Source: Henriciella aquimarina | GTDB taxonomy: Bacteria; Pseudomonadota; Alphaproteobacteria; Caulobacterales; Hyphomonadaceae | Direction: 5' to 3' | Length of the DNA: 64,000 nucleotides | Assembly (NCBI RefSeq): GCF_002088975.1 | Contig: NZ_NCST01000061.1 | Coordinates: forward strand, 62,001-126,000 | Shown: positions 32,358 to 39,753 of the stretch, in pieces | How the letters are laid out: every line of letters starts with the position of its first letter | How positions within the stretch are numbered: position 1 is the stretch's first letter | The notes under the pieces: generated by a model | Told to the model about the DNA's origin: nothing | The model's input: the letters and a program-made list of their open reading frames with translations, nothing else | Databases searched by the model: none | Translations under genes and position numbers: made by a program

Positions 32358-32526
32358 GTGTCTCTCCTCCCAGTCGAGCATTGTTTATTATTAGTGCTCG
32401 ATCTTTGCGTTTCCTCGCGAGGTCTTCCGTGTTTCCGGAAGTACCTCAATCGTCATGACAGCGGCAGGCGTGACACTTTGTCAACTACTTCGTGACTTTT
32501 GAGTAATATGCTTGGGAGGCGTGATT

Positions 32527-32556
32527 TTCCGGTGACGGTATCTTGCCGTAACGGAA
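32527..32556 (+). other. Hairpin in the queC leader
   Basis: Nested stem TTCCG (32527-32531)/CGGAA (32552-32556) with inner ACGG/CCGT (32535-32538, 32546-32549), about 45 bases before queC. It does not match the preQ1 riboswitch patterns I know. Function, if any, is unknown. Confidence 0.3.
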
Positions 32557-32600
32557 GGTTTTGCTTGGTTGGAACACAAGGCTCTGGTACTGGCGCGGCC

Positions 32601-33311
32601 ATGACAAAGCTCTCCTCTGCGCTTGTCCTGTTCTCCGGAGGACAGGATTCCACGACGTGTCTCGCCTCGGCGCTCAAGCGCTTCCGGCATGTTGAAACGA
32701 TCGGCTTTGATTATGGCCAGCGCCATAAGGTGGAGCTTTCCTGTCGGGACAATGTGCTGAAGGCGATCCGGTCGGATTTCCCGCAATGGGCCGACCGGCT
32801 GGGGCAAGACCATATGATCGACCTTGGCCTGCTGGGGGAAATCAGCGAGACCGCGCTGACCCGTGAGGCCGAGATCGAAGAGGGTGAAGACGGCCTGCCG
32901 AACACTTTTGTGCCCGGGCGCAATCTCATCTTCCTGACAGTGGCTGGTGCGCTGGCCTGGCGGCGCGGCATCAGCCTGCTGGTGGGGGGCATGTGCGAGA
33001 CGGATTATTCCGGCTATCCCGACTGTCGGCGCGAAACCATCGACGCCCAGCAGAAGGCGCTCGCGCTCGGCATGGACAAGGCCATCTCGATCGAGACACC
33101 CCTGATGTGGCTGGACAAGGCCGAAACCTGGCAGCTTGCCGAGGATCTTGGCGGGCAGGCGCTGATCGATATCATCGTCAAGGACACCCACACCTGCTAT
33201 CTGGGCGAACGCCTGCACCGGCATGACTGGGGCTATGGCTGCGGAAGCTGCCCGGCCTGCGAACTGCGGGCGGCCGGTTACAGGAAGTGGCGCAAGGGCC
33301 TGACCCCGTGA
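32601..33311 (+). CDS. queC: 7-cyano-7-deazaguanine synthase
   Basis: 236 residues. The PP-loop SGGQDS (12-17) activates the substrate with ATP; the C-terminal zinc site is CYLGE plus [10 protein letters not shown]. QueC converts 7-carboxy-7-deazaguanine to preQ0 using ATP and ammonia. The ATG at 32601 puts the PP-loop at the usual place. It overlaps queE by 4 bases; queE and queD follow, giving the first specific steps of queuosine synthesis in one operon. Confidence 0.96.
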
Positions 33312-33961
33312 AGACTTACTCCGTGAAGGAAGCCTATGTGACCCTCCAGGGGGAGGGCGCGCAGACCGGTCGTGCGGCGGTCTTTCTGCGCTTTGCCGGC
33401 TGCAATCTCTGGAGCGGGCTGGAACGCGACCGGGAAAAGTCTGTCTGCCAGTTCTGCGACACGGATTTTGTCGGCACCGATGGCGAGAATGGCGGCAAGT
33501 TTCGCGGCGCCGAGGCGCTCGCCGGTCATGTCGCCGCACTCTGGCAGGCGGATGGGCGCACGACGGGCGAGGCGGCCTATGTCGTCTGCACCGGTGGGGA
33601 GCCGCTGATGCAGCTCGATGCGGCGCTGATCGGCGCGCTCAAGGCGAAGGGGTTTGAGGTCGGGGTGGAGACAAATGGCACGCTGGCGGCACCTGAGGGG
33701 CTCGACTGGATCTGTGTTTCGCCCAAGGCCGACGCAGAGATTATCCAGACCCAGGGCGACGAATTGAAGCTGGTTTACCCCCAGACCGAGGCGGGCGCGC
33801 AGCCCGAGCGCTTTGAGAGCCTGCAGTTCAGGCACTTTTTCCTGCAGCCCAAAGATGATAGCAGACAAACGGAAAATATTGCCGCAGCCGCGGCCTATTG
33901 CATGAAGCATCCGAAATGGCGACTGAGCTTACAGACCCACAAGCTGATCGGGCTGCCCTGA
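33308..33961 (+). CDS. queE: 7-carboxy-7-deazaguanine synthase (radical SAM)
   Basis: 217 residues. The cluster-binding cysteines are Cys32, Cys47 and Cys50, i.e. C-X14-C-X2-C, the long-loop version known from some QueE proteins rather than the classical CX3CX2[10 protein letters not shown] is the SAM-binding GGE motif. A GTG start at 33308 is chosen, overlapping the queC stop as GTGA. QueE rearranges the queD product into 7-carboxy-7-deazaguanine. Confidence 0.94.
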
Positions 33962-34347
33962 GCCCGTCTGGTGAAGTGTTCGAGATCTCGAAGGCGGTGA
34001 CCTTCGAGGCGGCCCACTTCATGGGCGGAAAACCCGAAGGGCACCCTTACCGCAACCTCCACGGCCACAGTTTCAGGCTGGAAGCGTCCGTGCGCGGGCG
34101 CGTGAAGCCCGGCGAGGAATGGGTTGAGGATTTCAGCCTCCTGACGCAGGAGCTGAACGGCGTGGCGGCGCGGCTCGATCACCGGCTGCTCAACGATATT
34201 GAGGGCCTGTCTGTGCCGACGCTCGAGCGCATCTGCCTCTGGGTCGCTGGCGAACTGAAGACCAGGCTGCCGGGCCTCACCCGGGTCAGCCTGTCGCGGC
34301 CCTCTCTCAATGAGAATTGTACTCTCGAAATCGGCGGGACGGATTAG
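33916..34347 (+). CDS. queD: 6-carboxytetrahydropterin synthase family protein
   Basis: 143 residues. Zinc ligands His34 (FEAAHF) and His49/His51 (LHGHSF), the conserved LDHRLLND and PTLER motifs. The usual catalytic Cys four residues before the first His of HGH is Tyr45 here, see findings. Context (queC-queE) still argues for a role in queuosine synthesis. The start is uncertain: the ATG at 33916 overlaps queE by 46 bases; a GTG at 33976 would remove a 20-residue tail. Its stop codon overlaps that of the convergent gene. Confidence 0.85.
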   Translation: MATELTDPQADRAALSPSGEVFEISKAVTFEAAHFMGGKPEGHPYRNLHGHSFRLEASVRGRVKPGEEWVEDFSLLTQELNGVAARLDHRLLNDIEGLSVPTLERICLWVAGELKTRLPGLTRVSLSRPSLNENCTLEIGGTD

Positions 34348-36992: not shown

Positions 36993-38627
36993 TCAGCGTG
37001 GGTCGTACCGGATGCGCCAGTTGACGGCGAACTGCCAGTCATCCTCGTAACCGGGGACAGGTTCGTCATAGGGGCGCGATGCTTCGACCCCCAACTGGCC
37101 GACCTTGTCATAGGCGGCGCGAATGCCGAAACCGGCCGAGCCAAGGTCTGCCGAAGGAATGGGGCGGTTGGCGAAATCGACGGTCGAATGGTCGACAAAG
37201 GCGTAGACCTCGCTCTTCGAGAATTTGCCCTTCCGGAGGGGACGATAGGCGGCTTCGACCAGGGCCGAGGCGCCGGTATCCGCATTGATGAGCCCGTTTT
37301 CGAAGGCGCGGCCATAATTCGGTCCACCGACGGAGAAGCGTTCATTCGCGGGCAGGGGATCATCGGTCCACTGGCCACGGGCATTGAACCGCAAATAATA
37401 CTGCTTCGCGATACGCTGGACGAGCTTCAGGCTGGCTTCGGCCTTCAGAAAGTCGAGGGTGCCGACCGGCTGGGAGATGCGGGCGTCCAGGACGTCGAGC
37501 CCCTGCGAGACCTTGAGAGAAATGCCGGTATAGCGGTTCGGCTTTGTCCGGTCATAGCTGAGCGTTCCTCGTAACGCACGCGTGCGCTCGGTCGCGAGCA
37601 GCGAGCCGAAGGCGGCATTTTCGCTGTTGAGGGCATCAAGGGTCAGGATGCCCCGCAGATTGCGCTTGGAGGAGCGGATAAAGGGATGGCTCAGGGCGAG
37701 CGAGTACAGCTCCGCGTCGCCCGATATGCCCGTATCGTCGGCATAGGATTCCAGGCGTGCCGCGCCGGCGGTCGCCCGCGTTCCATTCGTGCCGATCGGC
37801 GTACTGTGCTGCAGGCCGGCATAGCGAGACGCGTCGAAATCCGTTGAGGCTGCGAGATCGAGGCGGGTTTGGTCGCCTGCCCGAAACAGGCCGTATCCCA
37901 CAGCCTTGCCGCTGACCTGCCCCTGATCGATGAGGCGTGTGGTGCGGCTGTCATAACCGACACTGAAATCGGTTCGTTTTTGTTCGGCGTCCAGCCGCAG
38001 GCGGACCGCTGCCGGCTTTGTGCCGTTGATCACCTTTTCCGTGACCTTCAGGCCCGGCGTGTCATCGAGCAGAAGGAGATTGCGTTCCAGGTCGGCGCGG
38101 CTTGTCGGGCGTCCCTCCTGCACTCGGTCCGCATGCGCGGCAATCAGGGCCTGTTCACCGGAGGTGAGATCACCCGACAGGATAACCTGCTGGACGTAGC
38201 CTTCCGCGACAAGGATGCGGACCTTGTTGTTCGTGAAGTCCTGTTCGGGAACGACCAGCGTGAAAAGGGCCACATCGGATTTCCGGTACGCATCGGAGAG
38301 CGCATCGACGAGGGCTTCAAGCGTGTCGCGCGTCAGGGCCTGGCCAACGAACGGCTCGGCGGCTTCGGCAACCCTTGCCGGAACGGCTGTGCCCTCGAAA
38401 TTGATCTGGCTGATGGCGCCGCCGGTCAGCCCGCTCGCATCGACTTCGGCCGACCCTGAGGGCAGCTTCGCGGACCGCTCGGGCAGGGCCGTTTGGTCGC
38501 GTTCGCGTTCCGGGTCCAGGCGGTCGCGGAACGTATCCGGCAGCTCCTGTCCGCAGGCGAGGGGTGGGGCGACAAGGCACGCTGCCAGCGATACCGCCAG
38601 CAGCGTCGGACGCATTTCGAATGTCAT
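36993..38627 (-). CDS. Two-partner secretion transporter (ShlB/FhaC/HecB family, TpsB)
   Basis: 544 residues. A signal peptide (about 1-26), a 45-residue linker, POTRA domain 1 (about 72-145; ISQINFEGTAVP), POTRA 2 (about 146-215), then a 16-strand ShlB-type barrel (about 225-544). TpsB proteins export a single partner across the outer membrane. No classical hemagglutinin-like TpsA lies nearby; the gene directly upstream encodes a collagen-like lipoprotein (64 bases between). The C-terminal residue is Arg, not the usual aromatic, so the final strand is unusual. Confidence 0.88.
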   Translation of the reverse strand: MTFEMRPTLLAVSLAACLVAPPLACGQELPDTFRDRLDPERERDQTALPERSAKLPSGSAEVDASGLTGGAISQINFEGTAVPARVAEAAEPFVGQALTRDTLEALVDALSDAYRKSDVALFTLVVPEQDFTNNKVRILVAEGYVQQVILSGDLTSGEQALIAAHADRVQEGRPTSRADLERNLLLLDDTPGLKVTEKVINGTKPAAVRLRLDAEQKRTDFSVGYDSRTTRLIDQGQVSGKAVGYGLFRAGDQTRLDLAASTDFDASRYAGLQHSTPIGTNGTRATAGAARLESYADDTGISGDAELYSLALSHPFIRSSKRNLRGILTLDALNSENAAFGSLLATERTRALRGTLSYDRTKPNRYTGISLKVSQGLDVLDARISQPVGTLDFLKAEASLKLVQRIAKQYYLRFNARGQWTDDPLPANERFSVGGPNYGRAFENGLINADTGASALVEAAYRPLRKGKFSKSEVYAFVDHSTVDFANRPIPSADLGSAGFGIRAAYDKVGQLGVEASRPYDEPVPGYEDDWQFAVNWRIRYDPR

Positions 38628-38691
38628 GGGAATCTTTCAGGACGCGCGAGACAGGCTGCGAAGGAGCCGACAGCCTGCCTCGTTTGCGGTC

Positions 38692-39753
38692 CTAGTTCTT
38701 GGGCCCGAGAAGGCCGCCGACAAGCCCGGAGACAGGGTCGCCCCCGGAGTCATCGCCGGAATCCTGCCCGAGCAGGCCGTCGGTTGTGTCGCCAACGGTT
38801 TCCACAAGACCCTCGGTCGTATCCTTCACGCCGGAAAGCGCGCCATCGGTGTCCGACCCGCTGTCGAGCAAGCCATCGACCGTGCCGCCGACATCGGTCA
38901 GGCCGCCAGAACCGGAGTCGCCCGTGAGGTTCGCGGTGACGGTCTCCACGGTGCCGCCAACATCTGAGAGGCCACCGCTACCGCCTTCGTTCGCGGCGAG
39001 CGTTCCCGTGACGGTTTCAGCTGTGTCGGTCACGGGTGCGAGAACGTTTTGGTCATTGCCGGCACTGAGCGAAACGAGCTCATCGCCGCTCAGAACGCCG
39101 ACCTCGAGAGCACTGCCGCCTGTCTGTTCAGCCGACAGGAGGCTGGTTCCGATCAGGGGTTCGGCTTCCGGACTGCCAATTGCGAACGCCTCGCCGACAC
39201 TGACATTGATCAGGGATCCCGGCGCCTCGGTGAGGCCATCGACGAGATACTGTTCGCCATTGCCGGTCTCAACGAGAGTCATCCCGACATTGTCAACGAC
39301 TCCGACAACCGTGCCGGCCAGCGGGGTCGAGCCAGGCATTGCTTCGTCCAGAACGGCTGCGACCTTCATGCCTTCCGTGCTGACAGGGGTCACCGTTTCG
39401 CCTGTCGCCACGAGCAGGTCGGAGGCGACGGGCATCGTCTCGTCCGGATCGCCGGTATTGGCAAGCAGGCCGGTCCCGGCCACGCCTTCCGAGCCAACCA
39501 GACCGCCGGCCGCGATGATGCCAGCCTCGCCGAGGGTGGCTGTCTCGCCGTCTTCACCGTCTGAGCCACTTTGGCCAGCCGGTCCGGCAGGCCCTTGAGG
39601 CCCGGCCGGGCCCTGTTCGCCCTGCGCGCCGGCCGGGCCGGCTGGCCCGACACTCGCAATGCGGTGCCGTCCATCTGATTCGCAGGCTCCGGCACCAAGG
39701 AGCATGAGCGAAGTAAAGCAGAGTACTGCTGCGTGAGTCCGTGACTTGGGCAT
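38692..39753 (-). CDS. Collagen-like lipoprotein, likely partner of the TpsB transporter
   Basis: 353 residues. Lipobox-like GAGAC (Cys24), then twelve Gly-X-Y triplets (36-71), rich in GPA/GPQ, i.e. a short collagen-like helix. A Gly/Val/Thr-rich middle (about 72-260) may be beta-rich. The C-terminal 90 residues are low-complexity, with a repeated DVGGTV unit (GGLSDVGGTVETV, GGLTDVGGTVDGL) and many Asp/Gly/Ser. GGAGG precedes the ATG at 39753 by 5 bases. It lies directly upstream of the TpsB gene on the same strand. Surface exposure is inferred. Confidence 0.75.
   Translation of the reverse strand: MPKSRTHAAVLCFTSLMLLGAGACESDGRHRIASVGPAGPAGAQGEQGPAGPQGPAGPAGQSGSDGEDGETATLGEAGIIAAGGLVGSEGVAGTGLLANTGDPDETMPVASDLLVATGETVTPVSTEGMKVAAVLDEAMPGSTPLAGTVVGVVDNVGMTLVETGNGEQYLVDGLTEAPGSLINVSVGEAFAIGSPEAEPLIGTSLLSAEQTGGSALEVGVLSGDELVSLSAGNDQNVLAPVTDTAETVTGTLAANEGGSGGLSDVGGTVETVTANLTGDSGSGGLTDVGGTVDGLLDSGSDTDGALSGVKDTTEGLVETVGDTTDGLLGQDSGDDSGGDPVSGLVGGLLGPKN

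What the first reader, a model, noticed from the sequence alone, without database searches (positions are those of the whole stretch)
36993..39753. Collagen-like lipoprotein next to a two-partner-secretion transporter
A TpsB-type transporter normally sits beside a large hemagglutinin-like exoprotein. Here the only same-strand neighbour, 64 bases upstream, encodes a 353-residue lipoprotein with twelve Gly-X-Y triplets, a Gly-rich body and low-complexity C-terminal repeats. This could be a surface-displayed, lipid-anchored fibre using its own outer membrane exporter, a form of two-partner secretion I do not know to be described. A short hairpin (38652-38677) between the genes might set their expression ratio.
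Basis: partly seen in the sequence, partly recalled or inferred. Interest (0 to 1): 0.7.

Follow-up and report, generated by a model that had tools for sequence, protein, structure and literature searches.

The report
Lipoprotein paired with its own exporter
A glycine-rich, collagen-like protein with a lipid anchor sits next to what looks like its private outer-membrane exporter, and the same pairing recurs in many related bacteria, suggesting an undescribed branch of a well-known secretion system that displays lipid-anchored proteins on the cell surface.

Summary
In detail: a 353-aa lipoprotein gene with 12 Gly-X-Y triplets lies 64 nt upstream of a TpsB (two-partner-secretion transporter) gene, with a strong stem-loop between them. 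The 16 other lipoprotein homologues found in the order (16 of 16 fetched) have a TpsB directly downstream. The window's genome gave no TPS-domain (TpsA) match, and this is its only ShlB match.

They form two strongly supported clades; one clade is not rejected. Of 44 TpsB loci scanned as control, only members of these clades have such a neighbour. Collagen is a replaceable spacer. What recurs is lipobox, low-complexity body, Leu/Val-Gly C-terminus and TpsB. Many partners outside the alphas match Pfam Collagen_mid; one such protein, BCAL1524, is published as vesicle-located and promoting autoaggregation.

Best reading: two-partner secretion with a lipid-anchored substrate, working like Slam but with a TpsB. 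Export is inferred, not shown. Against it: in one genome 3 of 5 Collagen_mid genes lie away from the TpsB. My searches found no published description.

The parts
36993..38627 (-). TpsB-type outer-membrane transporter, 544 aa (two POTRA domains and a 16-stranded barrel)
   Evidence: Pfam ShlB 3.6e-17, POTRA_2 1.1e-8; AF2 model pLDDT 76.5, pTM 0.75; best PDB fold matches CdiB and FhaC; the only ShlB-family match in the own genome
38199..38414 (-). POTRA 1 (residues 72-143)
   Evidence: Pfam POTRA_2 match at 72-143
37977..38198 (-). POTRA 2 (about residues 144-217)
   Evidence: order of strands and helices in the model
37302..37313 (-). L6-loop motif G439-R-A-F442, the counterpart of the Omp85 VRG(Y/F) motif
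   Evidence: G439 and F442 invariant, R440 at least 90% in 17 pair-associated TpsBs; the Omp85 motif name is recalled
38692..39753 (-). collagen-like lipoprotein, 353 aa, proposed TpsB substrate
   Evidence: ORF and lipobox; 17-member family alignment A4
39682..39753 (-). lipoprotein signal peptide and lipobox up to Cys24 (+2 residue Glu)
   Evidence: sequence; Cys24 invariant in 17; a Cys after Gly/Ala/Ser at residues 13-50 in 35 of 35 partner lipoproteins read in full
39541..39648 (-). 12 consecutive Gly-X-Y triplets (residues 36-71), the variable spacer
   Evidence: replaced by other Gly-rich sequence in L141, L158 and most partners outside the alphas
39004..39534 (-). conserved body that begins with the signature GGLVG..G..GTGL(L/F)AN.GD
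   Evidence: alignments A4 and A6; 17 of 398 genomes of the order match its 2-sequence profile A2
38695..38733 (-). C-terminal Leu/Val-Gly motif (VSGLVGGLLGPKN)
   Evidence: motif within 8 aa of the C-terminus in 26 of 35 partner lipoproteins; 1.9 expected from shuffles
38647..38682 (-). intergenic RNA stem-loop between lipoprotein and tpsB
   Evidence: MFE -29.1 kcal/mol, z -3.96; a stem-loop recurs at this place, z <= -2 in 15 of 21 loci tested

Best explanation
A two-partner secretion system with a lipid-anchored substrate. The lipoprotein is exported by Sec, acylated on Cys24 and delivered to the outer membrane (probably by Lol; +2 residue Glu). It stays largely unfolded because of its Gly-rich, collagen-like and low-complexity sequence. 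The TpsB encoded just downstream binds it with its POTRA domains and passes the body through its barrel to the cell surface. There it stays anchored by its N-terminal lipid, perhaps also by its C-terminal Leu/Val-Gly segment, and acts as a flexible adhesive or aggregating coat. The stem-loop between the genes probably lets more substrate than transporter be made. Shown here: gene pairing, its conservation, transporter fold (model), lipobox, no TPS-domain match in the genome, recurrent hairpin. Inferred: Lol routing, recognition by POTRA, translocation, topology, adhesive role, effect of the hairpin.
For: Linkage: 16 of 16 fetched homologue loci have the TpsB (37-47% identical) downstream on the same strand, gap -4 to 100 nt. 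Among 229 genomes of the order the 12 TpsB matches over 749 bits are all in genomes with the lipoprotein. Three of the four next-best (G114, G202, G201) also have a lipoprotein gene upstream (broken in G201); for G237 the contig ends. Wider: a Sphingobium plasmid, G1091, Cupriavidus and Caballeronia, and 12 of 12 further genomes fetched with a profile of the last three. Control: in 44 TpsB loci, a lipobox scan plus reading finds such a neighbour in 5 (L096, L097, L098, L123, L129), all clade members; 38 have none, L095 is cut by the contig end. Of 8 other TpsBs whose neighbours I scanned, 5 have a TPS-domain gene and 3 a YDG-repeat gene whose start was not read. No alternative substrate: PF05860 in 3 of 17 pair genomes and not in the own one; own genome has a single ShlB match. 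Tree: 21 alpha and 15 other lipoprotein-linked TpsBs each form one side of a 100/100 branch. Co-loss: G098 keeps only the last ~70 aa of the TpsB and no lipoprotein match in 12 kb. TpsB looks functional. Published: BCAL1524, a Collagen_mid lipoprotein, is in outer-membrane vesicles and promotes autoaggregation (PMC10303873, passages); bcal1524 and bcal1523 precede bcal1522, a 1,686-bp outer-membrane protein gene (PMC10224339, Table 1), and G1062 has the same layout with a TpsB in that place.
Against: No export, surface or binding data for this pair. The substrate has no TPS domain, which is what POTRA domains are known to recognise (PMC5422565, passages). In G1062, 3 of 5 Collagen_mid genes lie away from the TpsB (in G1033 the 1 of 1 is linked), and the table of PMC10224339 shows likewise 3 of 5 without such a neighbour, so such lipoproteins may not all need an adjacent TpsB. 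How acyl chains would pass or flip is unexplained. The alpha bodies and the Collagen_mid bodies are not clearly homologous (hhalign 46.6% probability). One partner (L148) has Asp at +2, which in E. coli would hold a lipoprotein in the inner membrane (recalled). PSORTb in PMC10224339 puts some relatives in the inner membrane. Six of 21 loci lack a marked hairpin.
Confidence: 0.62

Rival explanations
1. The lipoprotein stays on the periplasmic side as an accessory of TpsB: a tether, plug or chaperone that helps the barrel work or assemble, while TpsB exports something else.
For: Lipoproteins often assist Omp85 proteins (recalled: BamB-E); substrate not TPS-like.
Against: No TPS-domain gene in the own genome. 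Length and spacer vary widely (294 to 674 aa), as for surface proteins rather than a docking subunit. A relative is reported in vesicles and to affect autoaggregation.
Confidence: 0.15
2. Lipoprotein and TpsB act in one process, but the lipoprotein reaches the surface by another route (for example BAM, as for RcsF); TpsB is a receptor or exports another substrate.
For: Orphan Collagen_mid lipoproteins exist (3 of 5 in G1062). A structure of BamA with lipoprotein RcsF (6t1w) is listed; that lipoproteins can thread Omp85 barrels is recalled.
Against: Does not explain why 16 of 16 lipoprotein loci and 12 of 12 newly fetched TpsB loci have the same order of genes, nor the joint loss in G098.
Confidence: 0.14
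3. Classical two-partner secretion whose TpsA lies elsewhere; the lipoprotein gene is a chance neighbour.
For: TpsA and TpsB genes can be apart (recalled). Three of 17 pair genomes do hold a TPS-domain gene.
Against: No PF05860 match in the own genome (rated 99.99% complete). The three genomes with a TPS-domain gene have 2-3 ShlB matches each, and in G247 and G285 one lies beside the TPS gene. Linkage is 16 of 16.
Confidence: 0.04
4. The two genes are separate transcription units (a true terminator between them) with unrelated tasks, kept adjacent by common descent.
For: Stem-loops with U-rich tails lie between the genes in several loci.
Against: Adjacency and order hold in several families inside and outside the Alphaproteobacteria, while other TpsBs scanned lack such a neighbour.
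Confidence: 0.05

Closest known systems
Two-partner secretion, type Vb (FhaB/FhaC, CdiA/CdiB, HMW1A/HMW1B, HxuA/HxuB)
   Same: Transporter fold (two POTRA, 16 strands, L6 motif), gene pairing, repetitive substrate.
   Different: Substrate is a 294-674 aa lipoprotein without TPS domain, not a large beta-helical exoprotein; the transporters form their own clades.
Slam / surface lipoproteins (TbpB, HpuA, fHbp)
   Same: A dedicated outer-membrane barrel for surface lipoproteins; the Slam authors themselves liken Slam to two-partner secretion (PMC5449769 and PMC9090332, passages).
   Different: The transporter here is an Omp85/ShlB protein with POTRA domains, and no Slam-type domain matches it; the substrate is Gly-rich and low-complexity, unlike TbpB-type folds (recalled).
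Bcc collagen-like lipoproteins with Collagen_mid PF15984 (BCAL1523, BCAL1524; PMC10224339)
   Same: Gly-rich disordered lipoproteins; two of five lie directly upstream of a 1,686-bp outer-membrane protein gene; 6 of 7 non-alpha partners scanned match PF15984.
   Different: The window protein does not match PF15984; the paper's text contains no 'two-partner' or 'ShlB'.
Lipidated autotransporters (NalP, SphB1; type Va)
   Same: Type V secreted proteins with a lipobox (PMC8151025, passages).
   Different: One polypeptide carries its own barrel there; here substrate and barrel are separate genes.
Collagen-like adhesins (Scl1/Scl2, Lcl) and Bucl8
   Same: Gly-X-Y runs; weak NCBIfam matches to Scl and Lcl far below cut-off.
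   Different: Scl are LPXTG-anchored (model names); Bucl8 is itself a predicted efflux outer-membrane lipoprotein (PMC4565658, passages).

Membership tests
Two-partner secretion (type Vb) | TpsB transporter: two POTRA domains plus 16-stranded Omp85 barrel | tested here: met
   Pfam, AF2 model with 2 POTRA and 16 strands, Foldseek CdiB 1.7e-24 and FhaC
Two-partner secretion (type Vb) | L6 VRG(Y/F)-type motif | tested here: met
   GR(A/G)F conserved in A5; the L6 arginine is Lys in G035 (L036)
Two-partner secretion (type Vb) | Partner with N-terminal TPS domain (PF05860) | tested here: not met
   No PF05860 match in the 17 core alpha lipoproteins or in 10 of the 18 further partners; the other 8 were not scanned
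Two-partner secretion (type Vb) | Transporter and substrate genes paired | tested here: met
   16 of 16 lipoprotein loci; 12 of 12 newly fetched TpsB loci
Two-partner secretion (type Vb) | Substrate crosses the outer membrane through its TpsB | not testable with these tools
   needs a tpsB deletion and surface assays
Slam system | Slam-type translocon beside a surface lipoprotein | tested here: not met
   Pfam gives ShlB, POTRA and Omp85 families only
Bacterial lipoprotein | Signal peptide with lipobox Cys | tested here: met
   Cys24 invariant in 17; lipobox-type Cys in 35 of 35 partners read
Bacterial lipoprotein | Actual acylation and outer-membrane location | not testable with these tools
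   +2 residue not Asp in 34 of 35, but the rule is from E. coli (recalled)
Collagen-like protein (PF01391) | Gly-X-Y tandem over the Pfam cut-off | tested here: inconclusive
   12 triplets, 23.7 bits against cut-off 27.2; 13 of 17 family members match at E <= 0.01
Collagen_mid lipoproteins (PF15984) | PF15984 domain | tested here: not met
   no match in the window protein or in the 17; 6 of 7 non-alpha partners scanned match

The most novel reading that the evidence does not exclude
An undescribed branch of two-partner secretion, spread through the phylum, in which a dedicated TpsB moves a disordered, Gly-rich, lipid-anchored protein to the cell surface. That would make TpsB a surface-lipoprotein translocon convergent with Slam, with recognition not by a TPS domain but by the residues next to the lipidated Cys and/or the C-terminal Leu/Val-Gly motif, and with acyl chains passing a lateral gate or staying in the inner leaflet.
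Probability: 0.5. Interest if true: 0.85.

Novelty: new variant of a known kind. Interest (0 to 1): 0.72.

Why it matters
How lipoproteins reach the surface of Gram-negative cells is an open question with few known dedicated machines. A TpsB lineage whose upstream neighbour was a Gly-rich lipoprotein in every readable case examined would add a second dedicated machine. It would show that TpsB can act without a TPS domain. It would also give a probable exporter for Collagen_mid adhesin-like lipoproteins of Burkholderia, Cupriavidus and others, whose surface route is not addressed in the passages I read. It is directly testable by a one-gene deletion.

Tried and rejected
Class and phylum searches with the body profile A6 gave the own genome and three marginal hits (E 1.7e-4, 4.6e-4, 5.6e-4); no TpsB lies within the 1.5 kb held around them, and I take them as chance, though they could be read as unlinked homologues. 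Homology between alpha bodies and Collagen_mid was tried by profile comparison and left open (46.6%; the 93.3% covers 33 columns only, so not used). The lipoprotein model is too poor to search by fold (pLDDT 43.9), so no fold search was run with it. A complex of the two proteins could not be predicted with the tools. FecR- or cyclase-linked TpsBs (G077, G128, G152, G173, G104, Azospirillum L163) were considered as a third partner type and kept apart; FecR was confirmed in two. Promoter/terminator scan of the window region: 3 terminator-like sites, 3.0 expected, none in the gap, so the window hairpin is not a textbook terminator. One search missed the lipoprotein of G1066 because its gene picker took an opposite-strand frame; one search shows it.

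Rows left out of counts: L142 (G201), lipoprotein frame broken, so counted among the 36 TpsBs but not among the 35 lipoproteins; G237 (L095, L139), contig ends upstream of TpsB. Hairpin test: 21 of 36 loci; left out were 11 core loci with gaps of 42 nt or less, L038 (N in the gap), L140, L141 and L142. Of the five best Cupriavidus/Caballeronia plasmid hits I examined two (H1, H2).
Full report
Observation. The lipoprotein (38692-39753, -) has 353 aa, a lipobox with Cys24, and twelve Gly-X-Y triplets at residues 36-71 that no shuffle of its mature sequence reproduces (0 of 5000). The TpsB (36993-38627, -) has 544 aa and matches ShlB and POTRA_2. Its model has two POTRA domains and 16 strands at mean pLDDT 76.5, and its best fold matches in the PDB are CdiB and FhaC (by sequence profile CdiB 1.1e-12). 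The 64-nt gap folds into a stem-loop of -29.1 kcal/mol, z -3.96. The statement that the lipoprotein is the only same-strand neighbour is wrong, since enzyme genes flank the pair on the same strand.

Is the pairing conserved? The same genome held the best TpsB relative next to it. A profile of the body after the collagen stretch (A2) then found 17 of 398 genomes of the order, in 4 of 59 genera. I fetched the surroundings of all 16 besides the window. In 16 of 16 a TpsB 37-47% identical to the window's lies directly downstream on the same strand, gap -4 to 100 nt. These are not 17 independent cases: ten are from one genus and five from another. Neither gene was found in the 28 other same-genus genomes (two weak collagen-only hits set aside), so the pair is sporadic.

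Converse test. A TpsB profile (A5) in 229 genomes of the order gave 60 genomes with a match and a sharp gap: twelve matches over 749 bits, four at 313-377, the rest at 208 or less. All twelve lie in genomes that had the lipoprotein; the other five such genomes (G035, G247, G262, G285, G316) have no row and were apparently not drawn. Of the four, G114 and G202 have another lipoprotein gene upstream, G201 a broken one, and for G237 the contig ends there. G098 keeps only the last 70 or so residues of such a TpsB, and no lipoprotein match remains in the 12 kb fetched (low-complexity filter on), which looks like loss of both.

No hidden TpsA. The TPS domain PF05860 is found in 3 of 17 pair-bearing genomes and not in the own one, while ShlB is found in 17 of 17. 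In the own genome the window's TpsB is the only ShlB match.

Wider distribution. The divergent alpha partners replace collagen by other spacers: L141 and L158 by Gly-rich runs, L140 by a Pro/Asn-rich stretch. L158, on a Sphingobium plasmid, reads CESNGGTRFSSVG from the lipobox Cys, against CESNGHTRYASVG in L045 and L050. A TpsB from a phylum search (G1091) follows a Gly-rich lipoprotein gene, and so do its relatives in Cupriavidus metallidurans CH34 and Caballeronia insecticola. A profile of these three (A8) gave 13 genomes at 292 bits or more among 33: G1091 again and 12 others. All 12 others have a Gly-rich lipoprotein gene upstream, with at most 443 nt between its stop codon and the aligned TpsB start. 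The 33 genomes were picked by me from those with TpsB hits plus one marginal hit, so 13 of 33 is no estimate of frequency.

Control. In the 44 TpsB loci held (L095-L138, 1.5 kb flanks), a scan for a Gly-rich frame with a lipobox just upstream, with reading of cut frames, finds the arrangement in L096, L097, L098 (broken), L123 (G1066) and L129 (G1091) only. All five belong to the two clades; 38 have none and L095 is cut by the contig end. Of 8 other TpsBs with neighbours scanned in Pfam, 5 lie beside a PF05860 protein and 3 beside a YDG-repeat protein whose N-terminus lay outside the stretch.

Tree. In a tree of 50 TpsBs (36 lipoprotein-linked, 8 beside those TpsA-like genes, 6 beside FecR-type or cyclase genes), the 21 alpha and the 15 non-alpha lipoprotein-linked proteins each form one side of a 100/100 branch. 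One clade of all 36 is not rejected (p-AU 0.46), so one or two origins are both open. Several end branches are long, as the program warns.

What the substrate looks like. Across 35 partner lipoproteins (17 core alpha, 3 divergent alpha, 15 non-alpha) each has a lipobox-type Cys, 34 without Asp at +2. Lengths run from 294 to 674 aa and Gly makes up 15-33%. A Leu/Val-Gly motif lies within 8 residues of the C-terminus in 26 of 35, against 1.9 expected from shuffles. The pattern was written after I had seen several C-termini, so the contrast is descriptive. At E <= 0.01 the 17 core proteins match nothing in Pfam but Collagen (13 of 17). Of the 15 non-alpha partners 7 were scanned: 6 match Collagen_mid, PF15984, and L148 does not. 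Alpha and Collagen_mid bodies are not shown to be homologous. L141 shares recognisable body sequence with the alpha core, L140 barely, L158 not by this profile.

The hairpin. Of 21 loci folded, 15 have z <= -2 for the stretch after the lipoprotein stop codon. Several (L196, L197, L198, L199) show a U-rich tail, while the window's does not and the consensus scan does not call it a terminator. Of 11 core members with gaps of 42 nt or less one was folded, and it has no hairpin (L042). For 16 of the 21 loci I folded 100 nt after the stop, which may include some coding sequence, and other intergenic regions were not folded for comparison. A leaky stop that makes more substrate than transporter fits, but is inferred.

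Link to published work. PMC10224339 (abstract, passages, sections 10 and 16 seen) describes Collagen_mid lipoproteins of the Burkholderia cepacia complex as disordered adhesin candidates. Its Table 1 puts bcal1524 and bcal1523 directly before bcal1522, a 1,686-bp gene for an outer-membrane 'heme utilization-related' protein. Genome G1062 has the same layout: five Collagen_mid genes, two in tandem just before the TpsB. I infer that bcal1522 is this TpsB; the paper's text contains neither 'two-partner' nor 'ShlB'. PMC10303873 (passages) reports BCAL1524 in outer-membrane vesicles, with reduced autoaggregation in the deletion mutant. That is the nearest experimental support for surface display. 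Against a strict rule, three of five such genes are elsewhere in G1062, as in the paper's table; in G1033 the single gene is linked.

Mechanism. Classical TpsB POTRA domains bind the TPS domain of an extended substrate (PMC5422565, passages). Here there is none, so another signal must serve: the residues after the Cys (in the core alpha family C-x-S-x(4)-R, with invariant Cys24, Ser26 and Arg31) or the C-terminal motif. Slam shows that a barrel can dedicate itself to lipoproteins, and its authors liken it to two-partner secretion. In type V secretion, lipidation is described for autotransporters such as NalP and SphB1, with topology unresolved (PMC8151025, passages). Two core members (G077, G285) end in a Cys pair, which recalls the disulphide that holds the HxuA/HMW1 C-terminus in its pore.

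Novelty. I found no paper on a TpsB with a lipoprotein substrate in searches. These cover open-licence PubMed Central only, mostly as listings; I opened seven papers, six of them as passages only. The pair is a new variant of a known kind.

Noticed in passing
L004:535-2247 (+), L005:16-1734 (-): Two same-genus genomes carry a protein of about 570 aa with long Gly-X-Y runs and a C-terminal end that looks like a YadA-type anchor (collagen-type trimeric autotransporter; YadA likeness recalled, not tested), unrelated to the window lipoprotein outside Gly-X-Y.
   Followed up: no
L152, L153, L154, L143, L155, L163: A second TpsB group lies beside a FecR-type protein with a Gly-rich tail and a CHASE2 kinase or cyclase gene rather than beside a TpsA; FecR was confirmed by Pfam in L152 and L143 and CHASE2 in L152, the rest judged by eye or annotation. 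Possibly another non-classical TpsB partnership.
   Followed up: partly
L149:6000-6230: G098 keeps only the last ~70 aa of an alpha-clade TpsB and no lipoprotein match in the 12 kb fetched, a likely remnant of joint loss.
   Followed up: partly
L037 and L038 lipoproteins, C-termini: Both end with a pair of Cys 10 or 11 residues apart around the Leu/Val-Gly motif, reminiscent of the disulphide C-terminal anchor of HxuA/HMW1.
   Followed up: no
L142:4433-5966: The lipoprotein gene upstream of the G201 TpsB is broken across reading frames (real or a sequencing error in Gly-rich repeats); described only.
   Followed up: no
L204, L206 (G1062 C1:1513307-1515470): Two Collagen_mid lipoprotein genes in tandem before one TpsB, three more elsewhere in the genome: one transporter may serve several lipoproteins.
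   Followed up: partly
window 32499-34347 (+): A run of three ORFs that look like queC, queE and queD (queuosine precursor synthesis); recognised by eye only.
   Followed up: no
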